DNA from: Notolepis coatsorum
Lineage: Eukaryota; Chordata; Actinopteri; Aulopiformes; Paralepididae
Direction: 5' to 3'
DNA length: 64,000 nt
NCBI GenBank assembly: GCA_963971535.1
Contig: OZ020598.1
Span: 99,011,674 to 99,075,673, forward strand
Below the pieces are notes generated by a model that searched no databases, had not been told where the DNA came from, and was given only the letters and a program-made list of their open reading frames with translations. The first letter of the stretch is position 1, and the number at the start of each line of letters is the position of its first letter. Shown here piece by piece: positions 15,956-64,000 of this stretch. The position numbers were made by a program, and so were the translations under genes.

Positions 15956-16076
<121 letters not shown>

Positions 16077-39377: not shown

Positions 39378-41353
39378 CAAATATGAAGGACAAGAATTCA
39401 AAATGTTGGACATGAAGAGAGGCTTGGAGAATCTCCTTTGGGGGGTATCTCCGTCTCTGGAAGGGGGGCTTCTCCAGTGGGAGGGCTGATCCCCCTCCAA
39501 ACTGCCAACTGGGGAAAGAGTGCGAACCATATAACCATTTATATTCATGTAATCTTTTCTTATTGTGTTGTTAGTTTTATTTTCATAAATGTATGCAGTG
39601 ATGTCGGTGACATGGGAGGTACAGAGATGGGCAGGCTGGGTTCAGTGGGGGGGGGGGGGGTGTCGGGGGGAGGGGCCATCGTTCCGGCGGTTCGAACCGG
39701 GGGAGGGGGGGCCTTGCGTGTTGTGGGATTGGTGTGGGGGGGTGGTCCTGGGGTCCTCGGCCACCGTGGCCGGGGCGCTCTGGTCACCGGGCCGGGGGGG
39801 CACTGGGCTTGGGGTCGTGGGGGTCGGGGGGCCATTGAGGCATGGTGATTTGGCCTTCTGCGGACCTGGGCTTGGGGTTCTCGTGGGCCGGCGGTCGGGC
39901 GGGGGCGGGTGGGGGCTCTGGGTGCTCGGCTCCGCGCATGGTGGACCAGGATATGGGGGTGTTCTGTCTCTCGGGGAGGAGGGCGGGAGGGAGGGGTTTC
40001 TCTCAGGGGGATCAGAGCAGCTGGGCTTTACCCGGTGGGGCCCTGTGTGTTGGGGGGTCGGTGGGCGTGGGGTGGGGCTAGGGCTGGGCGATAAAACGAT
40101 AACGATAACTATCGCGATAAATTATTTCCTCGAAATAAACATGAAACGTGGTCGCAAAGTTTCGATATATCGATTTTCCAAGCTTGGATATCAGCGCACA
40201 TGCACTAACAACCAATCAGTGAAGGAGATGGCGACAGCGAAGGAGACCCGCGGTGCACCTCTGGGTAGTAAACAAGGCTGGCTAGGATCATTAGCTTGCA
40301 CGCCGCTATTTTATAGTTTACGTGCGGAGTGGGTGTGTGGCGTGAATTTTGATGGTAACGGTTAGAGTAGTGTGGGGTATGCGGTGGACGTCGTTGCAAT
40401 GTATTGGGGCGGAACGGAGTATTTTAGGGTGATAGTTAGTACATTGTCGTGGGATACACCGCTTGCTCTGGCTAACTGTTAGTTCCATTCTTATAATGCA
40501 TATGATCCAGTGGCGGTAGGTTGCCCCCTGGTGGAATATAATAATCTATGCACTGGGGCGTAGAAGAACGTGCGCGGACTGATGACGACATCAACTCGAG
40601 ACATTCGCAGCAGCAAAACAAGTGAGTCTATTAATAACCTGTCCGTCTGCGCCTTAAACTTGACAGAAATGATATCGACGATAATTATCGATATCGAGTG
40701 ATATGAAAATAATTTAATAATTTTATCGCAATAACGTTTTTGGCCATATCGCCCAGCCCTAGGTGGGGCTCTCAGGGGCATGGGAAATAGCGGTCTTGGC
40801 TCGGTGGGGGGGAGTCCCCTATCCTTTCCTCTACTGGGCCTGGCCCAATTGATTCAAGGGACCCGTGTCGCAGCGGCCTGGGATATGGGGGGCTCCAATG
40901 GGCTTAACTCAGGGGGGGGGATGTCGGGGGAGGGGGACCATCGTTTCCGCGGTTTGGCCCGGGAGGAGGGGGTCTTGGATGTTGTGGGGTCATCGGCCGT
41001 GGGGTGGGGTGCTTGGAGACATGGGAGGTAGCGGGCTTGGCTCGGTGGGGGGGAGTGCCACCCCTCGAACCTCTGCTGGGCCTGGCCCAATCAAATTCAA
41101 GGTACCTGTGTCGCTGAGTGCTCGGCCCCGCGTGGGACGGCCCTGGGATGTGGGGGAGCCCTGTTTGGGGTGGATGGCGGGAGGGGGGGGGTCCCTCTCA
41201 TGGAGGTCTAGGAGGCTGAGTGCGGCCGAATTCAAGGGGCCCATGTGAATGTACTGTCGTGTTGTTGATGTCATTGTAGGTATTGTGTAAGTGTTGTTTG
41301 TCTATAAATGTTAATAAAAAATGTAAGAAGAAAAAAAAAAGAAGAAAAAAAAG
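39378..41353 (+). mobile_element. L1-like LINE 3' end: G-rich 3'UTR and poly(A)
   Basis: About 1.3 kb (outside the hAT insertion) of extremely G-rich plus-strand sequence with three related blocks (from about 39610, 40860 and 41020; for example TGTCGGGGG followed by GGGCCATCGTT and GTGGGG). It ends AATAAAAAATGTAAGAAGAA and an A-rich tail at 41318-41353. A G-rich polypurine 3'UTR before poly(A) is known for L1 elements. The long frames on both strands are GC-skew artefacts. The tail joins the 50-bp minisatellite directly. Confidence 0.6.
40079..40761. mobile_element. hAT MITE (TAGGGCTGGGCGATA family), TSD GGTGGGGC
   Basis: 683-bp element with ends TAGGGCTGGGCGATAAAACG and GGCCATATCGCCCAGCCCTA and perfect 8-bp duplications GGTGGGGC at 40071-40078 and 40762-40769. 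The interior is AT-rich relative to the G-rich host and has no transposase. A fragment of the same family is at 421. Confidence 0.95.
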
Positions 41354-41396
41354 AACAATCTGTATAGTCAAAGTGATGCTTCCCAGAGGAGTTAAC
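41354..41396 (+). repeat. 50-bp minisatellite, block 1
   Basis: Part of one unit (AACAATCTGTATAGTCAAAG ... GAGGAGTTAAC) ending exactly where DIRS-like element 1 begins. Blocks 2 and 3 at 46486 and 52020 complete it. Confidence 0.9.
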
Positions 41397-41437
41397 GTTA
41401 GGTTATGTATATAACCAAGTTCTGTTAATACTAGTGA

Positions 41438-41605
41438 CGCTCAGCGTCATATTGCATATATCTCGCTTCAGCGTATATACACTGAATAAATTTCAAAATG
41501 TACCTCTACATGCCAGCATTCATCTGGCCACACCCCCATCCGCTTACCTACATAAGCGGGGATGGGACCACACACTCATCTCCTTCCCAACAAATTTCAC
41601 CATAA
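41438..41605. repeat. DIRS 1 inverted terminal repeat, left
   Basis: CGCTCAGCGTCATATTGCAT through CACACCCCCATCCGCTTACC to TCATCTCCTTC matches, inverted, 46297-46463 with few differences. Confidence 0.9.
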
Positions 41606-41634
41606 TAAAAAATCAAGGGCTGCAGCGGCGTCTA

Positions 41635-41721
41635 GACGCTGAGCGTCACTAGTATTAACAGAACTTGGTTATATACATAACCTAACGTTCTGTGTCATAC
41701 TAGCTCCCGCTCAGCGTCATA
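41635..41721. repeat. DIRS 1 internal complementary region
   Basis: First part (41635-41686) is the reverse complement of the left terminus, ending CATAACCTAAC. The second part (41687-41721) is the reverse complement of the right terminus, starting GTTCTGTGTCATACTAGCTC. Joined, it is the complement of the end-to-end circle junction, as in the established DIRS replication model. Confidence 0.9.
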
Positions 41722-42791
41722 GGACCGAGCCCCCCCGACCCCCCCTAATGGAGGGCACCCCCCCTATTGGAGGTTCCCGGGAGGGCGACGGACCCGACCG
41801 TGCGAAGAGGCACTCAAGCAACTCAACGCACAGGGTGAGCAGACCGTGGCCTGACCCCACGACTACACACACGCACAACCGCATGCCACCCGGGAACGAA
41901 CGGAGGGAACAACCTCGTTACTGCCCCCAGAATCACGGGGTCAAGGGCAAACCCAACCCCGTGGCAAGGCCGTAGCAGCGGAGCGCGAAGGAAGACCCAG
42001 ACCCACTGAAGGGACTGGATCCCCTGGAAAACGGGGGCCCGGAGAGGTCAATGACGCCAGGCATCAAGACCCCACCAGGCGGTCACTTAGTGACACCGCC
42101 CCCCACATCGCCAGCGTATTCGGATAAGGCCCCTCTTCTCCAAGAGCGGGCCCTTTTCCCCCAATAGCACACCGCCTGGCACACTGACCCTGCAGAACAG
42201 GCAGTCAGCATGGCCGTAAGCACACAAAAAAGGTTAACCAACGGAAGCAGGCAGCGCACCGGGGAAAACCAGGCAACAGGCTGTAACCTGAGCCTGGAGC
42301 ACTGCGGACGAGACAGGCGCCAAAGGAGTCAGCTCCGGCGGAAGGGGCGCATGCTGGCGTTGTTGCATGACCAAGCCTCCATTTAAAAAAAAAAAACCAC
42401 CCAAAGGGGTTGAAGCAGAGAAGGCTGACACGATTGGCAGACGTCATGAACGTGCAGGGGCACCCTCAACCGGGTAACCCGGGAGTTGACACTGCTCCAA
42501 CACACCAGGGAATCAACCACCTTGTCGTTACCCAATGCGGTGGTTGTTCCTATAACCCCTCAAGAAAAAACTCCAAAACACACCTGCGGGTATACACCGG
42601 CTATACCGCAGTACAAGTTTCAGTTTTCAAAAAAGGGTTATCCCAGGCCTACGGGTCGACGAAACATTACTTCGGACCGGGCCCGGCGATACGGGAAGCA
42701 CAGGGTCACCAGAGGAGGTCAAAGACCACCCCAACAGGCCCCTCTTCGCCATGCGTGAGAGAGGAGCGAAAAGAATGGAGAACCAGCCCCA

Positions 42792-42909
42792 AGCACACCG
42801 TACTTGGTATTCCCAGGCGGTCTCCCAACCAAGTACTAACCAGGACCAACCTGCGTAGCGGCCGAGATCTGACGAGATCGAGCGTGTACAGGTTGGCATG
42901 GCCGTAAGC
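42792..42909 (-). pseudogene. 5S rRNA-like sequence inside DIRS 1
   Basis: On the minus strand, about 118 bp collinear with vertebrate 5S rRNA: GCTTACGGCCATGCCAACCT at the 5' end, CGATCTCGTCAGATCTCGG, CTGGTTAGTACTTGG and GGGAGACCGCCTGGGAATAC. The internal promoter C-box region is nearly intact, while the A-box region (GCTACGCAGGTTGGTCC) and 3' end have substitutions. No T-run follows immediately (TTTT only about 25 bp later). Either a 5S pseudogene or the head of a 5S-derived SINE; the body after it is not recognisable. Confidence 0.85.
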
Positions 42910-45900
42910 CATTACGACAGTGCAGAGTACAAAATGTACCCAACCAGGGTCTCCATAGCGCTTAACCCTGTGACACCCGGACCGACCTGGCATTTTTCCC
43001 CCTGAAAAAAGCCCAAGTCCCTCAGGGTACCAGAACAGCAGATCTGCATCCCCGGCGGACAACGGGTTTAACTAATCTGGACCAGCGTGACCAGAACCAG
43101 TCCCGTGCCATAACCACGCCGACATGCCTACTCCAGGAGAAGGGGCAGATATGCGTGTTGATCTTAAACATGAAAAGAAGGCGCCACCCAGACGTTCGGG
43201 GCGAACCGCGCCCGGTGGCCCACCCCCAGGGCGTGAGACCCCTCTACATATGTTCAGATCCATTCCGTCATCATCCCCCAGATATGAACGAGAATCCGTC
43301 GACAACCAAAACAGGTCGTCGGAAGAGGAAAAAACCTCCATCCCAGTTGCTTTATAAAAACGCTGTTTTAACCTCAAGCAACCAAGGCGTGCCAGTCATT
43401 CGCCTGATCTTCAACAGAACACCCCGAGCTAGCACTATGCGTGCGTCGGGACACAACCACATCAATGAACAGGCTATTTAGACCTGTCATTGAATCCCCA
43501 AGGCGCCCAGGGGAACGACAAGAGGGGTGTGATGCTTCCTAACTCCAACCCTTTTTAATAGAAAAGAAGGAAGCACCAACAGTATGTATCCCAGTCTACA
43601 CAGCCGGGGGTAATTTTTTTTTACATTTTTACATCCCACCACCCTCCCATAGGGAGGAGACGGAAATCCCCAGAGAGACTTCCCACGCGAGCTGTACAGA
43701 TTGAAAAGAATATATTGCAACCTTGAGCCATGTAAAAGTTTGGTTTTAGGGCTCTCCGGGGAGGAGGCACTGAACCCATACACACTCAATAATCGAATTG
43801 AATCGAATACACACACAATAGAGTAGGACTCCTTTTTGAGGTTCCACTCACCTTGACAATCTGAGGAGAAGGAGAGTCCTAACTCACAGAAGGCCCGAAT
43901 AGGAGCTTCGTGAGGAGGAGCCCTGACCACCCCCCGAAACAGATCCATCATATGGACCCGAACAGCACACGGAAGTCCTACCAACAGAGACGCGCACAGT
44001 GACATACTCTATGACGGGGGAGTTTCTGCGGTGCACACGCCCAATATTCCAGGGCGTGGGACCAGGAAACTCCCTCCCCCCCCCCCCCCCCCTCTTACCC
44101 TGTAACGTGCCGAACAGCAACGTGACAGGAACCTTGAAGGACAGGAGGTTTTAACCCCTGCCCATCAAAGAAGGGGAGAAAAGGATTACCAGTTCACCCC
44201 TTTATGACCCCACACCCATGATACGATGTAATGACAAAAAGGAGTATGACGCAGTCATAGTCAGCTCCATGAAGCGTCTAACAGCTTCACACAGCGCATG
44301 TGCTAACCTGCCATCTGATTTTTACTAAGGAAAAAACACAGAATAGAGAGGGCCCTCTCAAGAGCCCCGGTACCAGACTTACACATGTGCTTCTGTGGCC
44401 AACCCAACCCAGTTGTAGGTCGCACGACACACACAACCCTTTATCACCTACAAAAAATGGCAAAAACACTCTACAGAGGAACGCCGTTTTTCATAATGAG
44501 AGAATACATAATTCTCGATTAGTATCGGCCACAGGCCTTGCTAAGCACACACGAAAAAGTTACCAAACAATCTTTTCTTTTAGGAAAATATAGTTTCTCA
44601 AGCTGTTCTAGCACAACCCCAGCAATCAAGCTAAGGGTTACATCGTATCCCTACCACACAGTGTACAATATATTGTAACAACACGTCTGAGAGGAGGGTG
44701 AAGAAGTCCCCAGGGAACCGGGGGGAAAAAACACCCCTCCCACTTTACCCTTGATACGGCCAGTTAAACAGGTAAACCTGTTAATATGTGAACACACTGT
44801 TCATTGTCATTACAGGCTGAGAAAAGAATCATTCTTTACTCATATGTCACTAAGCATAGCTTTATAGGTTAGTTTAACCCCCTTAGTTGTGAGTACACGG
44901 TACATGAACACACAATGTTTCTCAACACAACAAACCAGATCATTTTCACATCTGTAACAACAACCCGATTTGCATGGAGAAGCTACTACCAGTGACAAGA
45001 CAATTCACACATAACTCGCGTCGTATCCTAAATGTAGTGCAGCAACACTCGTTTTGGAAAACATCGTTATTTACAAAACATTTAGAAGGGAAAGCAAGAA
45101 GAAGTGTTCAAGGTCTGGTCAGGACCCTTCCTACCGTGAGCGCAGATCAAGCGAAACTGCAGTCTCTAACAAGGCACCGTAGTAACACAGCCGTCCTGTG
45201 TTGTCGCCATGGGCAGCGTCGCCACTCCATCCCGCCACTACGGTCCCCCTTGTTGACGCAGTCCTCGCCGGCTGGCCCCAGGGTAGGTTCGACTAACATC
45301 CTCTGTCAAAGATGACGTCGTAGTCAGAGTGTTTAAGCATGTTATAGTCTCAGAACGTTCAACAGTGTAGCATTAAGCTAACGGCCGCACTCGGCCGATA
45401 GCAGCAAGCTAACGTTACCTAGCCTAGTGACACAGGCTTGGTAAACACAGCGAGCTAGCGCCGCAGCTAACAGCTGACTGGCTAACACAGTAGGCCACAA
45501 CTAGCACGCAAGCTAAGCAGCTATCACCTGAATTCGTACACAACGATATAACAAGCCACTCAGACAGGCCGCCGTTCTGAAACCCTCCTCACCTTTTAAG
45601 AGAGAAGAGAAACGAGATGTTAACACAGTTTTACAACGGTGATTTTACCATCCGGCGGAGCCGGTACAAGTCCCTCTGGGCTGTAGCCGACTTGAACATG
45701 GATTTTCCGATAACGATCATCCATGCTCACATTTCCTCGTTTAGGGTATACTCTCATTTGTATATGAAAGACGGGGCCTTATACGGTGACAGAGAAGTAC
45801 CCACGCGTCCAGAGATCCTGGGATCACCAGTTACTGGTCGTGTGGCCCACTAGTTGCTATAATTAAAGGCTGAACAAAGGACCCTAATCTGGGGCCGGTG

Positions 45901-46296
45901 TTCGTAAACATTGTCAGCTAGCCCCCATAGCACTAACAGACAAGTGAAGCTCGCAAGCAAACATTACTCACCAAACCTGGAACCCACCGCTCCTCACAAC
46001 AGCGGCGCGTCCTACAGTCCAGCTGTGTCACTAGAGGGTTTTACCCCAACCAGCCGCAGCAAGGCGGACTGTAGTTGTGAGACATGTAGCGGCGTGAACT
46101 CCCAATACGAAAACCGGTGGAGGTTTTAGAATGATCACCATCTTCCAGACACTCCAGTGACGAAGACAATATCGCCATATTTTCTCGAAAATAGTGAGAG
46201 AGAAAATAAAGATATAATGTCAACGTATCTCCTTGTTCTTCCTTTCCTCAGAGTAAATATTTTTCTCCACGTCAAGTGAGCATGTGAGCAGCACGT

Positions 46297-46463
46297 TGTT
46301 TGTGATGAAATTTGAGAAGGAGATGAGTGTGTGGTCCCATCCCCGCTTATGTAGGTAAGCGGATGGGGGTGTGGCCAGATGAATGCTGGCATGTAGAGGT
46401 ACATTTTGAAATGTATTCAGTGTATATACGCTGAAGCGAGATATATGCAATATGACGCTGAGC
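46297..46463. repeat. DIRS 1 inverted terminal repeat, right
   Basis: Inverted match to 41438-41605. It is followed by AGCGGGAGCTAGTATGACAC at the element end, which differs from the left extreme and is represented separately in the internal complementary region. Confidence 0.9.
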
Positions 46464-46485
46464 GGGAGCTAGTATGACACAGAAC

Positions 46486-46596
46486 CATAGATAACAATCT
46501 GTATAGTCAAAGTGATGCTTCCCAGAGGAGTTAACCATAGATAACAATCTGTATAGTCAAAGTGATGCTTCCCAGAGGAGTTAACCATAGATAACG
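46486..46596 (+). repeat. 50-bp minisatellite, block 2
   Basis: About 2.2 units of CATAGATAACAATCTGTATA ... TCCCAGAGGAGTTAAC between the two DIRS-like elements. It begins exactly where block 1 stopped in the unit and ends after CATAGATAAC. Confidence 0.95.
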
Positions 46597-46637
46597 ATAG
46601 GTTATGTAGATAACCTAGTTATATTAGTATTGGCTAA

Positions 46638-46796
46638 GCGTCCCGCTCTGAGCCTTACGAGATACTCATATCTCCTGTGATACCTAATGTATCTCCCACG
46701 AACAAAAACACATGCACCCCACCTGTATGGGGCCCCGCCCCTTATGGTGGCCACCGCCCATATAACCATGACCCTGGTCATGAAACACCCTTCCTC
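46638..46796. repeat. DIRS 2 inverted terminal repeat, left
   Basis: GCGTCCCGCTCTGAGCCTTA through CCACCTGTATGGGGCC to CACCCTTCCTC matches, inverted, 51841-51999. Confidence 0.92.
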
Positions 46797-46848
46797 GCCA
46801 AAACCCGTCCCAGGAAAAGATCCCTCAAGAGGGAACTCAGGGCGCGCA

Positions 46849-46947
46849 GAGCGGGACGCTTAGCCAATACTAATATAACTAGGTTATCTACATAACCTAT
46901 CGTTATATTTCGTATTGCATCGCGTCCCGCTCTGAGCCTTACGAGAT
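46849..46947. repeat. DIRS 2 internal complementary region
   Basis: 46849-46901 is the reverse complement of the left terminus (ending CATAACCTATC) and 46902-46947 that of the right terminus (starting GTTATATTTCGTATTGCATC). Same circle-junction logic as in element 1. Confidence 0.92.
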
Positions 46948-47173
46948 AATGGGGAAGAGCGGGCGCGAGACCCGACAGATGTACCCCCTGAGGACCCGTA
47001 AGCCCACATCAAGGGGTGCGGGGAGCCCTGTCACCCCATCCTTCCTAACGAAGGGGGGGCGCAGTCAACTCCACCTGAATGCGAACAAGAGGGAGCCAGA
47101 ACCCCTTGAACACACCGTACAGGCGGAACCACGTGTGACTCAACACACTGCGGCCCATACCCATACACTCCTG

Positions 47174-48125
47174 CTACCCGACCAAAGGACGGGAAGCAGG
47201 AAAGGCCACAGACCCCAGAACCGCCTGGAAGACAGAACCCCCGGTCATGTCCATGAGGAAAAACCTTACAAAGGAGCCCGGGGAGGACCATGAAGCTGCA
47301 GCACAGATGGCCTCCACCGAGGCCCCACCCAGGAGAGCGGCAGAGGCAGCCACCCCACGAGTGGAGTGCGCCCTGACGCCCCCAGGGGGATCCTGCCCAG
47401 CCAGCGTGTAGCAGAGGGTAACACCCTCGCACAACCAATGGGACAGGCGCTGCTCCGACAGTGCCTTACCAGCACGAGCCCCACCGTAATAGACAAAAAG
47501 CTGGTCGGTAACCCTGAAATCCTGAGTACGGCTGAGGTAAATCCCCAAGCACGGACTGGACATGACAGGTGAAGGCCCGCATCTAACTCACCAGTGTGAG
47601 GAGGAGGACGAAACGCCTGAACCACAATATCCCGGGAGCGGAAGGAACTCCGGATATTCTCAGGCACGAAAGCAGGATTAGGTCGCAGAGTGACACCGCA
47701 ATCGGTCCGAAAAGACAGGCACTCTGGATGTACCGAGAGAGCACAGAGCTCACCTACGCGTTTAGCGGAAGTGACAGCCAGAAGGAACGCGGTCCTGAAG
47801 GACAGCTGTCCCAACGGCGCCCGCTCGAGCGGCTCAAACGGGGCCAAGGACAACCGACCGAGGACCAATTGAAGATCCCAAGTCGGAGCCAAGGAGCGTT
47901 GCACCGGCTTAACGCGTCGAGCGCCAAGCAGGAAACGCTTCACAAGAGGGTGGCTGAACAAGACATCCCCTCAAACCCCTCATGATAGGAGGATATAGCT
48001 GCTGCATATACCCTCACCGTCGAAGCCGACAGTCTATCAAGGAGAGACTGGAGGTAACTAAGGACAGCAACCAGGGGGCAGGAGACTGAGTCCTGGCCCC
48101 CCGCCTTACACCACACTTGGAACAT
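47174..48125 (-). pseudogene. DIRS tyrosine recombinase
   Basis: Read on the minus strand over three frames. N-terminal SAM-like part: LSYLQSLLDRLSASTVRVYA (about 48060). Catalytic part: FLLAVTSAKRVGELCALSVH (first Arg, in KRVGEL), LRPNPAFVPENIRSS, DQLFVYYGGARAGKALSEQR, then GGVRAHSTRGVAASAAL (the HxxR box) and AICAAASWSSPGSFVRFF. In relatives the nucleophilic Tyr follows RF in this last motif; here the residue is Phe, so the enzyme would be inactive even without frameshifts. It would integrate circular DIRS DNA. Confidence 0.88.
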
Positions 48126-48392
48126 ACGTCATCTGCCCGCGTAAGCGCGACAGTGGAGGGAGCATGCGCATTCCAGATGGTAACACCATCAGGATCAAGA
48201 ACCTGCGCCCCTCAACGTACCCGTCCCAACAACTGACCTAACAGATGTATGGGGAAGAATCCCTGGCGGCACGGCATCGGTCCCAGACCTGCCTGGCCAT
48301 GTCCAGACGCAATCCTCACCCGTCAGGATGAGGGCCGCCCCGCGACAGTACACCTGCACCCACATTCTCCCTGCCGCGGATGTGGGGAGCCC

Positions 48393-48660
48393 TTAGGCCG
48401 CGCAGATGGAGGACGCCCATAGCCAGCCGCCCGCCGCCTGGTGCAGACAGGGGGAGCGTACTCCTCCCTGTCTGTCGATACACGACACTGACGTCGTATC
48501 GTCCGTCCTGATCAACACCATTTGTGGACCAGAAGGACCGCTTTCAACACCAACACATTGAACGTAGCGCAGACCGGGCAGCATGGTTTGCCAGCTGCCC
48601 CCTACTGCGTTGGCCCGACGCATCACCAGCGAGGGAGGCGTCGGTGAAAACGCGACGTGA
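48393..48660 (-). pseudogene. DIRS RNase H-like domain
   Basis: Minus-strand peptide LIRTDDTTSVSCIDRQGGVR corresponds to the (R)SDNT-VV-YINRQGG motif of DIRS RNase H, preceded by a degenerate stretch matching the VLELRAV-type region. It sits between RT and recombinase, as expected. Confidence 0.75.
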
Positions 48661-48729
48661 GACAGCGCCGTAACCGTAACACGCTCCGAGATGGATGCCC
48701 ATAGCCCTCCAACCGTTGACTGGGAAGAG

Positions 48730-49320
48730 GAATACTCTACATCCAGTCTACAGCAACCCCAGGCTGGTAGAGACCTGCCTGGTACGAGACCTGACGATCC
48801 ACCTTGACCGCGAAGGACCAGAACGTCATCAGGGCAGAACACTCCGTAACCCCGGATGACGCAGAGGCCCCAGTGCGGCCTCCACGCACTTGGTGAAGAT
48901 GCGGGGAGCCAGAGAAAACCGAACGGCAGCCTCTGGTACTCATACGCTAACCCTGCAAAGGAAGCGTAGGTAAGCCCTAGGATGGAAGATCGGGGATGCG
49001 CATACGCATCCTACAGGTCTATGGAGGAGAACCAGACCCCCACCTGACAGTGTTCAACAGGTAGGAGACGATCCAAAAAATGCTGAACCTTCCCATGGGA
49101 CAGGTCCAGCCTGGGTCTTACACCCCTCCCTCCCGACTTCTCGGGCAGAGAACACCGGGAGGAGAACGCCACGACGATGGCTTGCTTCGTCCACAGAGAT
49201 TGGATCTCGTCGACCAGAGCTGTCCCTGCTGGAGACCCCGACAACAGGGTCTGTACCAAACCTGAAAACGGGTCGGGTTGTGTAAACACAAGTCCCCGCC
49301 TCACCATTCTCTCCATCTAC
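48730..49320 (-). pseudogene. DIRS reverse transcriptase
   Basis: Minus-strand segments include PFSGLVQTLLSGSPAGTALV, then DEIQSLWTKQAIVVAF, RPRLDLSHGKVQHFLDRLLP and WFSSIDL (first catalytic Asp region, cf. WFASIDLKDAYFH). Toward 48730 come LPFGF and FCPDDVLVLR, in place of the usual PYLDDWL active site. Several frameshifts separate them. The order and spacing match the DIRS RT. Confidence 0.82.
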
Positions 49321-49661
49321 CTCGACATATGGTACTGCCGTAGTCATATGTGACGACACTCCCAACGCACCCGCCGTCACGTGGCGCAGGTCCGCCAGGA
49401 ACTGTAGATAGTTGGCCCGGTCCCCCCCGCTGTGCGAAGACAACCCTGGAATCGTGCGAGGAGCGCGTTCCGTGTCGGAACACCTGACCCTGACACCACC
49501 CACGAGGCAATCGCACCCAAGGGGGAACCCCGACAGAAAAGGGCCTGTCTGATACGGGGGGCTTCCGATCAAAAAAGCCCCCCCACTGAACACCCCTCCA
49601 GAACATGCTGAAGGAGTTGTTCTGCAGCCGGACATGCAAGGTGTAAGGCCCCCATGGGTTC

Positions 49662-51700
49662 CTACACACCGTAGCCCTGCAGTGATATCACTACCACCCC
49701 AAACCATGTGAGCTGCGACCACTTGCCAATATTCCAGGAGTGGGAGCACCAACATGATACCTGGCCTGGCGAAGGCGAGGCCGGGGAAGCCCGCACTGTG
49801 TGCCTCAAAAGGTTTCGAGCCCCCCTGCTGACAACACTTAAGTTGACAGACGTAACACCAGGCTCAACCAACACAGTTCAAGGTGTGGGAGCCGCTTGAC
49901 AGCACAACATTCTCACGGACAGACCCAGGCTCAGCCATCAACTGGGTGTCAGCCCCTGTCTCCATGAGAAGCGAAGAATGGGGCCGCATACGCTTCAATG
50001 AAGGTTCGCGGCCCGCAGCCAAAGGAGAACGCTCAGAGCCCCGCTTCTGGGGATACCAGAGAGAGGATTGAACGGGGAGCGGGCTGCTCGCGGCAAAATG
50101 ACGACGGAGTGGTTTACCAACACCGAAATCACCCAAAATGGCCGATCCCTCGGCCGCCAAGACTGTCGGCCTCGCGACACCCTGTCGATTCTCCAACCAG
50201 GGCACCACTGGCGGGGGAAACATGGCCGCCTGTCGAGGGCCCCGTCATCGCCGCTGACGAGGCCGTGCTCTCTCTTCTTCTGGCTGCGCGGTGTGAGGCG
50301 GTGTAGGGCCTAGGACAATACCGCCCGCGCTCCAGCAGAAGACCAAAAATCCCCTGCGGAGAGGGGAACCCTGAGCGGTTATAGCTTGCGGCTGGGTCAA
50401 AGCTAATAACGTCAACAACCTTGCGCGATGTGTCGACGTCGGCCGGCCCTCAAGGCCCCTCCACCAGACACCATTTCTTTAATAGAAAAAACACCAATTC
50501 GAACACAGTTCTAATCGTTGCCAATTCCATACCGTGGCGGTACAAGCCTCAACAGCCCACCAGCCACTCGCCAGGCCGACCCATGGTGTCGGCCGGGCGG
50601 GGCATTGTTTCAATATATCAAAAACAAAGGACTGACGTTAACATGGAGCACCAGTGGTGATTGCAAACAGCACCCTCCACTGTGGTGTGGACCATGAAAA
50701 GGTTAAATGAATAAAAGAGCTAAACCACAAAAACTGTAGAATGAGCAAACCCATACACACAAAGTTTAAGGGGAGACGGACCAGACCCGTCTTCATTCAA
50801 AATATTCACAACAGAACACCAGCCCTAGTTTAGCCCATTTACCAAAAAAGGTAAACAAAGCCCCCCCCCCGCACTACTCCCCCAGTATACCGATTGACCG
50901 TCAGTATGAATGGTTTGAGAGGAGAGAAAGCTGTAGCAAGACAGACCTTCTCATAGCAGAGTGACAAAATGAAACAATAGCCCCCTACACAGGGCCGCCC
51001 CAGGAGATGGGGGGCCTCGCGTCTAAAAACGCACAGGGCCTCACATTTCTCCCAAGCGGCCCTGCCCTTATACTACTGCAGCCTAACGCCAGGCAATGTG
51101 GAACCCAAGACAACAATTGCCTGTGCACAGACACGCAACATGTTTACCATGTCGGCTGGACCCATAGCCCCACTACCCGACGCCAACCCAGATGGGAACA
51201 CCGTTCAACAAACCCCGCCGGAACACAAGGTAATACCTGGCTAGAACCTAGCCACGACCTACCCCGTTGTCAACCCATTTACCCGAAAAAGGTAAATAGA
51301 ACTCAAAACCCCACAACAGCTACCGACTGACCTTCATTGATGAACCGGGCAAGAGGCGGGAGAGTGACAACATCCCACGGCGGAGACATTAAAACAGCAT
51401 AGCAATTAGCAGTAGTGATAGCATGCGGCAGTAGCGATAGCATGTTAGCATAGCTTTAGATGTTTTAGCAGCACGCCCAAGACAGCTTGGAAACCGTTCC
51501 CTGCAGAGAACGTTCACCAAACCATCTTGCCCCTGGCGCCAACACACAACAAGGTTGTGTTAACAACACAAACCAGCATTACTAACACTAATACCCATGC
51601 CTGAAGACACAGGGCCTACCTGAGTACAAGCTGGCCCGACAGCCAGCCTTGTACAGCTGAACCTCGATGTGCAGTCATCAAACGAGGAACATCACAGGCC
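49662..51700 (-). pseudogene. DIRS ORF1/gag-like region, degenerate
   Basis: Region upstream of the RT on the minus strand, where DIRS elements carry their gag-like ORF. Fragments such as QSSLWYPQKRGSERSPLAAG and KRMRPHSSLLMETGAD are basic and proline/serine-rich, compatible with that role, but no conserved domain is readable. The remainder (51000-51700) is 5' untranslated-type sequence. Confidence 0.45.
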
Positions 51701-51840
51701 CGTCGTGTCGCCGAAAACATGCGTCGAAGATGCCAGGGGCCAGCAACCTCCGGTAAGCTTCCAACATTATTAATCTTCCTTAATCTTTTCATTCCGCTAG
51801 CTCGTATGGTGCACGCATCCAATACGCTGGGACGAAAATA

Positions 51841-51999
51841 GAGGAAGGGTGTTTCATGACCAGGGTCATGGTTATATGGGCGGTGGCCACCATAAGGGGC
51901 GGGGCCCCATACAGGTGGGGTGCATGTGTTTTTGTTCGTGGGAGATACATTAGGTATCACAGGAGATATGAGTATCTCGTAAGGCTCAGAGCGGGACGC
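51841..51999. repeat. DIRS 2 inverted terminal repeat, right
   Basis: Inverted match to 46638-46796. The element then ends GATGCAATACGAAATATAAC. Confidence 0.92.
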
Positions 52000-52019
52000 G
52001 ATGCAATACGAAATATAAC

Positions 52020-52211
52020 AATCTGTATAGTCAAAGTCAAGCCTCCAAGAGGAGTTAACCATAGATAACAATCTGTATAGTCAGTGATGCCTCCAAGAGG
52101 AGTTAACCATAGATAACAATCTGTATAGTCAAAGTCATGCCTCCAAGAGGAGTTAACCATACTGTAGATAACAACCTGTATAGTCAAAGTCACGCCTCCA
52201 AGAGGAGTTAA
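52020..52211 (+). repeat. 50-bp minisatellite, block 3
   Basis: Nearly four units starting AATCTGTATAGTC, exactly where block 2 stopped. These units carry CCTCCAAGAGG where blocks 1-2 have CTTCCCAGAGG. Sum of the three blocks is about 346 bp, or 7 units. Confidence 0.95.
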
Positions 52212-52215
52212 TTAA

Positions 52216-52359
52216 GCATTACATCATGCGACGGAGTGTGTTATACAAATTAGATCACGCCTATGGGTGGTTGTTAGGCCCGAGGCGCAGCCGAGGGTCG
52301 TTAGACCCCCATAGGCGTGATCTAATTTGTATAACACATGACTTCAAGTGATGTAATGC
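52216..52359. mobile_element. Foldback MITE with 31-bp near-perfect arms
   Basis: Arms 52237-52267 and 52308-52338 (TGTGTTATACAAATTAGATC ... CCTATGGG) are inverted complements around a 40-bp loop containing GGCGCAGCCGAGGGTCGTTA. Outer ends GCATTACATC and GATGTAATGC pair as well. TTAA precedes the left end (52212-52215) but is not seen on the right. Confidence 0.85.
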
Positions 52360-58527: not shown

Positions 58528-58552
58528 TGAATGCGGTAGCGCCCAGCGGTTA

Positions 58553-58832
58553 ACCCCTTCTGTAGTGTGGTAGTGAAAGGGTTAACCTTCTGTATTGTCG
58601 CAGTGAAAGGGTTAACCGTTTGGTAGTGTGGCAGTGAAAGGGTTACACCTTCTGTATTGTCGCAGTGAAAGGGTTAACCGTTTGGTAGTGTGGCAGTGAA
58701 AGGGTTAAACCTTCTGTATTGTCGCGGTGAAAGGGTTAACCGTTTGGTAGTGTGGCAGTGAAAGGGTTAAACCTTCTGTATTGTCGCAGTGAAAGGGTTA
58801 ACCGTTTGGTAGTGCGGCAGTTAAAGGGTTTT
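58553..58832 (+). repeat. 62-bp GTGAAAGGGTTAAC minisatellite
   Basis: Dimeric unit: CTTCTGTATTGTCGCAGTGA plus AAGGGTTAACC, then GTTTGGTAGTGTGGCAGTGA plus AAGGGTTAAA. About 4.5 dimers. One more related unit, inverted, is at 63858-63912. Confidence 0.92.
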
Positions 58833-63760: not shown

Positions 63761-63857
63761 ATGTATATATACAAGGAGAGACAGAGAAGCAGATGAATAC
63801 GCCTGAATATTCATTAATCAACATACATTTCACCGACAGGTTGGAATAATACAGAAG

Positions 63858-63912
63858 GTTAACACTTTCACTGGCACACGACAAAGGGTTAACCCTTTCA
63901 CTATCACACTAC
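63858..63912 (-). repeat. Single unit of the GTTAACCC minisatellite
   Basis: AAGGGTTAACCCTTTCACTA and TAACACTTTCACTGGCACAC read, on the minus strand, as the AGTGAAAGGGTTAA units of 58553-58832. No rDNA accompanies it. Confidence 0.75.
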
Positions 63913-64000
63913 AGAATTCGATCACATCATTACAGTTCGATCAGTTAACATGTTGCCAGGTTCTATAGTTTGATATTCTGAAAAGAGAAGTCACAGCCAC

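What the first reader, a model, noticed from the sequence alone, without database searches (positions are those of the whole stretch)
41354..52211. Two different DIRS-like elements inserted at neighbouring AAC sites of one 50-bp satellite unit
Element 1 (41397-46485) sits after GAGGAGTTAAC and element 2 (46597-52019) after CATAGATAAC. In the 50-bp unit these two AACs lie 10 bp apart. The three satellite blocks join in perfect phase when both elements are removed. Two unrelated subfamilies landing in the same orientation in a roughly 350-bp array is unlikely by chance. It suggests that DIRS recombinase recognises this satellite or that the array is a DIRS landing site. Seen: boundaries and phase. 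Known: DIRS integrate by tyrosine recombination without ordinary TSDs. Inferred: target preference.
Basis: partly seen in the sequence, partly recalled or inferred. Interest (0 to 1): 0.9.

Follow-up and report, generated by a model that had tools for sequence, protein, structure and literature searches.

The report
Jumping genes land in TAAC minisatellites
Two DIRS retrotransposons sit a few repeat units apart in one short tandem array, and in the same genome elements of this type land in this array family and in a second, far larger one much more often than chance predicts.

Summary
The observation largely holds. Two DIRS1-like elements (41397-46485, 46596-52019) interrupt a 50-bp array; cutting both out joins it in phase. 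Each shares one AAC with the array and has no target duplication. The insertion points are 110 bp apart, not in one unit. The pair alone is weak evidence: with roughly 16,000 DIRS copies, about 8 pairs this close are expected by chance.

Of 38 left flanks from one chromosome stretch, 33 end in AAC and 18 in TAAC. I count 22 DIRS left ends at TAAC sites of the 50-bp family, window included, against about 4.7 from a TAAC-only model; one other locus holds three. The larger target is a 31-bp GGTTAACC minisatellite: 8 of 60 sampled copies and 1,127 junctions in one orientation against 90-165 modelled, perhaps up to 1.3 times that if divergent units are added. So these arrays look like real DIRS hot spots, but not by recognition of this one satellite. 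Whether the bias arises at integration or by retention is open. Ten paper searches listed no report of it.

The parts
41354..41396 (+). left block of the 50-bp minisatellite, ending in the target AAC (41394-41396) used by element 1
   Evidence: identical to 46493-46535
41397..46485 (-). element 1, DIRS1-like (about 1,500 copies by its left-end 31-mer, up to 2 mismatches); the right-end AAC is 46483-46485. Strand follows from the position of the internal complementary region
41438..41590 (.). element 1 terminal inverted repeat; partner 46312-46464, 153 nt, 99% complementary
   Evidence: I2
41635..41721 (.). element 1 internal complementary region: reverse complement of its left end joined to its right end at AAC/GTT
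   Evidence: (I4, I7)
46486..46595 (+). middle satellite block, ending in the target AAC (46593-46595) used by element 2
46596..52019 (-). element 2, DIRS1-like of another subfamily; right-end AAC 52017-52019. Recombinase- and RT-like frames on the minus strand are recognised from memory, not by a database match
   Evidence: no Pfam match above cut-off
46618..46796 (.). element 2 terminal inverted repeat; partner 51841-52019, 179 nt, 95% complementary
   Evidence: I1
46844..46948 (.). element 2 internal complementary region spelling its circle junction
   Evidence: (I3, I5)
52020..52211 (+). right satellite block, a variant unit with spacings of 48-55 bp
58548..58830 (+). array of the 31-bp GGTTAACC minisatellite, the commoner DIRS target family in this genome; no DIRS palindrome (up to 2 mismatches) inside this copy

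Best explanation
Two DIRS1-like retrotransposons inserted independently into an existing minisatellite. Shown by sequence: each circle junction carries AAC, the target carries AAC, and after insertion AAC is at both ends with no target duplication. Shown by counts, with the limits named below: left flanks favour (A/T)TAAC, and two TAAC-bearing tandem-repeat families hold several-fold more DIRS insertions than their number of TAAC sites predicts. Inferred: the tyrosine recombinase exchanges strands within AAC and prefers TAAC, and arrays in addition gain or keep insertions more than other TAAC sites. I think the likeliest reason is array chromatin, or weaker selection against insertions there, rather than one long recognised sequence, because three contexts in the 50-bp unit and both orientations in the 31-bp unit are used.
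For: In-phase join of the window array and a second empty site at C1:113.66 Mb with both junctions read. Flanks: AAC 33 of 38, TAAC 18 of 38, against 1,028 TAAC among 4,272 AAC in 133 kb of background. 50-bp family: 13 of 20 hits at the first TAAC, 7 of 19 at the second (reversed-pattern control 1), 2 of 5 in reverse; together 22, or 20 without the window, against 4.7 (Poisson P 7e-9 for 22; 1.4e-7 for 20). 31-bp family: 6 of 38 and 2 of 22 sampled copies in a repeat with 312,851 core matches, about 0.27% of the assembly; binomial P 1e-9 for 6 of 38, or 4e-6 counting only the 4 copies whose neighbouring unit the core search would find. 1,127 junctions in one orientation, reversed control 0, against 0.7 (uniform), 40 (AAC), 90 (TAAC) or 165 (TTAAC) modelled. 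Three left ends within 12 kb at C1:113.661-113.673 Mb.
Against: The rates rest on 38 copies from the first 20 Mb of one chromosome and on 133 kb of non-random background. None of the 60 sampled copies lies in the 50-bp family. Numerators are looser than denominators: 2 of the 6 satellite flanks (L126, L151) have units with 4-5 mismatches to the core and are outside the 312,851, and the 1,127 junctions do not require the core; in held sequence the repeat covers 0.35% (870 of 245,700 bases, with L017 and L020 removed; 1.1% with them), so the excess over TAAC/TTAAC may be nearer 5-10-fold than 7-12-fold. Junction searches allow mismatches while the total of about 16,000 comes from an exact motif. 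Collapsed arrays in the assembly would inflate the excess. Right-hand flanks were read for three elements only. The two reverse hits counted have identical matched letters and could be one duplicated event. At the same GTTAAC palindrome one orientation has 13 cases and the other 2-5 (P 0.007-0.096; the patterns differ in strictness), which could point to a longer recognised sequence.
Confidence: 0.68

Rival explanations
1. Chance: DIRS elements are so numerous that two fall in one small array now and then, with only the known AAC requirement at work.
For: With 16,000 copies about 8 pairs within 110 bp are expected in the genome. 0 of 60 sampled copies are in the 50-bp family (element-1 copies by eye).
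Against: 22 insertions in the 50-bp family against 2.1 modelled from AAC alone; 1,127 against 40 in the 31-bp family; 3 of 26 array loci outside the window have an abutting DIRS left end.
Confidence: 0.1
2. Direct recognition: the recombinase binds a longer sequence around GTTAAC or TAAC that both minisatellites happen to supply, so the arrays are true preferred targets.
For: Counted insertions lie exactly at the TAAC positions searched. The 31-bp family exceeds the TTAAC model 5-7-fold in one orientation. Possible orientation bias 13 against 2-5.
Against: The two units share little beyond GTTAAC, and several contexts are used. No similarity of the units to the circle junctions beyond chance. 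In 38 left flanks no position from -21 to -6 carries more than 0.16 bit.
Confidence: 0.3
3. Retention: insertions happen at any TAAC, but those in arrays are kept longer because arrays are silent and dispensable.
For: Accumulation of DIRS-1 in Dictyostelium centromeres is published (PMC5633606, passages seen). Contexts used in the arrays are varied.
Against: A 3.4-Gb genome should offer many neutral TAAC sites outside arrays, so a several-fold bias needs strong selection elsewhere (inference). Not tested here.
Confidence: 0.3
4. The satellite was carried in, or amplified, by the elements.
For: In the cases counted, array and element meet at the unit's TAAC; element 2 shares the 8-mer TAGATAAC with the unit.
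Against: That 8-mer length is reached by 67 of 1000 shuffles. 23 of 26 array loci outside the window show no DIRS left end at the array. A single untandem unit exists at C30. About 15 of 25 array loci, by eye, share a left flank of their own.
Confidence: 0.03

Closest known systems
DIRS1-like retrotransposons of fish (GaDIRS1, GaDIRS2, TnDIRS1a)
   Same: AAC circular junction, inverted terminal repeats, internal complementary regions, integration at a matching trinucleotide without target duplication (PMC3266345, passages seen)
   Different: That paper describes the 3-bp match; the passages seen say nothing on TAAC preference or minisatellites
DIRS-1 of Dictyostelium discoideum
   Same: Accumulates in repeats; said to insert preferentially into copies of itself and to make up 50% of centromere sequence (PMC5633606, passages seen)
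   Different: There the target is DIRS-1 itself, without apparent sequence preference; here it is two minisatellites with a TAAC site
Ngaro retrotransposons in virophage-like EMALEs of Cafeteria burkhardae
   Same: Tyrosine-recombinase retrotransposons with a biased target (91% of type 1 in EMALEs; PMC8547959, passages seen)
   Different: A choice between viral and host DNA, linked there to ORF1; not short tandem repeats

Membership tests
DIRS1-like retrotransposons | inverted terminal repeats | tested here: met
   153 nt at 99% and 179 nt at 95% complementarity
DIRS1-like retrotransposons | internal complementary region spelling the joined ends | tested here: met
   both elements
DIRS1-like retrotransposons | 3-bp circular junction identical to the target, no target duplication | tested here: met
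   AAC at all four junctions, in-phase join
DIRS1-like retrotransposons | RT, RNase H, methyltransferase and tyrosine recombinase genes | tested here: inconclusive
   8 distinct frames scanned against Pfam in two calls: no match above a curated cut-off, one weak helix-turn-helix hit at E 0.06. One frame against PDB sequences: one hit at E 0.092, an unrelated-looking design. RT- and recombinase-like motifs in broken frames of element 2 are recognised from memory only; the longest stop-to-stop frame listed in element 1 is 178 aa
PAT-like / Ngaro (split direct repeats; the definition is recalled) | split direct repeats instead of inverted termini | tested here: not met
   The long terminal repeats are inverted
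50-bp minisatellite family | tandem units dispersed over the genome | tested here: met
   135 matches from the 40 scored of 1,099 candidates; 5,484 core matches, reversed control 2, including arrays with spacings of 28 and 40 bp

The most novel reading that the evidence does not exclude
In this genome the DIRS recombinase uses TAAC-bearing minisatellites as a preferred landing place. About one copy in seven (8 of 60 sampled; 1,127 of roughly 16,000 in one orientation alone) lies in a single 31-bp minisatellite family that makes up about 0.3% of the genome, giving a large retrotransposon population a site-specific safe haven.
Probability: 0.4. Interest if true: 0.75.

Novelty: new variant of a known kind. 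Interest (0 to 1): 0.62.

Why it matters
What decides where tyrosine-recombinase retrotransposons insert is, to my knowledge, little known; the rule in the papers I saw is a 3-bp match. A genome with roughly 16,000 insertions and two array families with defined sites makes target choice directly measurable. If the bias is at integration, DIRS elements would join the retrotransposons that spare genes by homing to repeats; if it is retention, arrays are a refuge. It would also explain nested and stacked elements in minisatellite arrays such as this one.

Tried and rejected
Rejected: 'the satellite is rare' (my first reading from 4 exact matches of one 24-mer; overturned). Rejected: the satellite mimics the element ends. 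Of 20 site-1 hits, 13 were counted; C13:65.31 Mb was dropped after its letters were read (not the satellite), and 6 were left out because the letters after TTAAC do not look like a DIRS left end (one, C35:22.67 Mb, does share its first six places). Of the 13, letters beyond the pattern were read for 7 (window, L069, L166, L168-L171); L168 has a left end cut short and L169 only part of a unit; the other 6 are judged from the 27 matched bases. Of 19 site-2 hits 7 were counted and 12 left out, of which C8:5.78 Mb, C1:48.99 Mb and some others might belong. Of 5 reverse hits 2 were counted. Protein family and PDB searches led nowhere. Ten paper searches listed no report of DIRS in minisatellites, judged from titles and abstract openings; four papers were opened, at passages only. 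The reverse-orientation count for the 31-bp family did not complete. A count of all GTTAAC insertions and a list of right ends were planned and not run.

Rows dropped before counts: of the 100 places listed I used 40 of 43 pairs; 3 pairs and 14 unpaired rows were left out. 2 duplicates of the 40 pairs were removed (L112, L119). In the element-1 flank sample 1 of 23 rows (L084) is an internal region, so 22 are used and pooled figures are 52 of 60 for AAC and 31 of 60 for TAAC. One search held 30 loci, 26 of them independent. The unpaired rows mean the copy number may be nearer 18,000 than 16,000.

Full report
What is there. The window carries a 50-bp minisatellite in three blocks (41354-41396, 46486-46595, 52020-52211) split by two DIRS1-like elements. 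Cutting both out gives a 349-bp stretch with unit spacings 50, 50, 50, 50, 48 and 55. The left block equals the start of the middle unit letter for letter, and the two full middle units are identical. All four junctions carry AAC. [quoted passage not shown] for element 1 and ..ATATAAC|GATAGG.. for element 2. These are published features of DIRS1-like elements, including the AAC junction in G. aculeatus and T. nigroviridis (PMC3266345, passages seen).

Corrections to the finding. The insertion points are 110 bp apart in the joined array, at the first TAAC of one unit and the second TAAC of a later unit; they are 10 bp apart only in phase. The elements differ inside but share 83% of 41 nt at the left end and a palindrome GGTTAT-N4-ATAACC. 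The joined array has 12 TAAC on the + strand and 7 on the other, so a shared orientation is unremarkable.

How strong is the pair alone? The exact motif AGGTTATNNNNATAACCNAGTT occurs 32,029 times in the 3.42-Gb assembly, reversed control 0. An intact copy has it twice (left end and internal region), so there are at least about 16,000 copies; among the 100 places listed, 43 pairs and 14 single rows suggest somewhat more. At 16,000, about 8 pairs of insertion points within 110 bp are expected by chance. The pair is therefore not evidence by itself.

The 50-bp family. It is dispersed: 135 matches from the 40 scored of 1,099 candidate places, and 5,484 matches to a core 23-mer with up to 3 mismatches, some in arrays with spacings of 28 or 40. 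About 15 of 25 array loci, by eye, share a left flank, so many arrays lie in an interspersed repeat. Of 26 independent array loci held outside the window, 3 have a DIRS left end abutting the array (L040, L069, L072; palindrome with up to 1 mismatch). Junction searches over the whole assembly gave: first TAAC, 13 of 20 hits counted, window included; second TAAC, 7 of 19 hits (reversed control 1); reverse orientation, 2 of 5 hits, whose matched letters are identical to each other. The total is 22, or 20 without the window, against 1.3 modelled for uniform insertion, 2.1 for AAC sites and 4.7 for TAAC sites. The model takes all 5,484 core matches as full 50-bp units, which probably overstates it.

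Stacked insertions recur. At C1:113.66 Mb one element sits at the second TAAC and its right junction resumes the array in phase (L040; L165). Another subfamily sits at the first TAAC about 1.35 kb past that right junction, in a separate block of the satellite (L166). At C1:113,672,776 the matched letters read CAGAAC-CATAAATAAC-GATAGG: the 10 bp between the two TAACs of one unit, with what looks like the end of one element on one side and the start of another on the other. That the CAGAAC belongs to the L166 element is inferred from distance.

The flank consensus and the larger target. From the list I took 40 of the 43 paired copies, all in C1:0-19.8 Mb, and fetched 40 bases on each side. After removing 2 duplicates, 33 of 38 left flanks end in AAC, 18 in TAAC and 6 in GTTAAC; positions -5 and -4 favour A/T and T. 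In 133 kb of background TAAC is 1,028 of 4,272 AAC. Six of the 38 lie in a 31-bp minisatellite with GGTTAACC; 2 of 22 element-1 copies do too. None of the 38 resembles the 50-bp unit, nor, by eye, do the 22.

The 31-bp core occurs 312,851 times with up to 2 mismatches, reversed control 22; at 30 bp each this is about 9.4 Mb or 0.27% of the assembly. In held sequence the repeat covers 870 of 245,700 bases (0.35%) once the two loci brought in by a DIRS in it, L017 and L020, are removed. Two of the six satellite flanks (L126, L151) differ from the core by 4-5 bases and would not be in the 312,851; binomial P is 1e-9 for 6 of 38 and 4e-6 for the like-for-like 4 of 38 at 0.27%, and 6e-4 for 4 of 38 even at 1%. 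The junction pattern for one orientation occurs 1,127 times, control 0, against 0.7, 40, 90 or 165 modelled from uniform, AAC, TAAC and TTAAC rates; allowing for the divergent units the excess over the last two is 5-10-fold. Among 45 exact junctions listed on C1, 3 neighbouring pairs lie within 7 kb, against 0.04 expected, though duplicated segments may contribute, as the pattern at C4:40.77 Mb suggests.

What is not settled. The rates rest on 38 copies of one chromosome stretch. The junction searches tolerate mismatches and the total does not. Right-hand flanks were read for three elements only. Whether the bias arises at integration or by retention was not tested. An orientation difference at the same GTTAAC (13 against 2-5) hints at a longer recognised sequence but is not secure. 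The reverse-orientation count for the 31-bp family did not complete.

Prior reports. Dictyostelium DIRS-1 is said to target its own copies, without apparent sequence preference, and to make up half of centromere sequence (PMC5633606, passages). Cafeteria Ngaros of some types favour virophage-like elements (PMC8547959, passages). Xenopus DIRS-like elements carry TTT ends (PMC9210276, passages). Ten searches of the open-licence library listed nothing on DIRS in minisatellites; most subscription papers are not held, and I opened only four papers, at passages.

Noticed in passing
window 58548-58830 and 63848-63916: Two arrays of the 31-bp GGTTAACC minisatellite that is the commoner DIRS target in this genome; no DIRS palindrome was found inside either.
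   Followed up: yes
window about 40800-41353: An A-rich, LINE-tail-like end abuts the left edge of the satellite directly before AACAATCTG; it may have replaced the usual left flank of the array.
   Followed up: no
window 52216-52359: A hairpin with 52-nt arms, 87% complementary, starts directly after the last satellite unit (..GTTAATTAAGCATTACATC); it looks like a small inverted-repeat transposon.
   Followed up: no
window 46596-52019 and 41397-46485: Terminal repeats are nearly perfect while reading frames look broken (element 2) or short (element 1, about 1,500 copies), as expected for copies mobilised in trans.
   Followed up: partly
L001 1497-1545 (C30:86.195 Mb): A single untandem copy of the 50-bp unit, bounded at ATAAC and AACCATA.
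   Followed up: partly
C1:3.515 Mb and C1:25.716 Mb: The same core sits in arrays with 40-bp and 28-bp spacings: one minisatellite core with several unit lengths.
   Followed up: no
L072 3685-4190: Another tandem repeat of about 50 bp with AGAAC in each unit, near a DIRS insertion in the satellite.
   Followed up: no
C4:40.774-40.779 Mb: Two DIRS junctions 418 bp apart in opposite orientation, repeated in swapped order about 5 kb on; looks like an inverted duplication.
   Followed up: no
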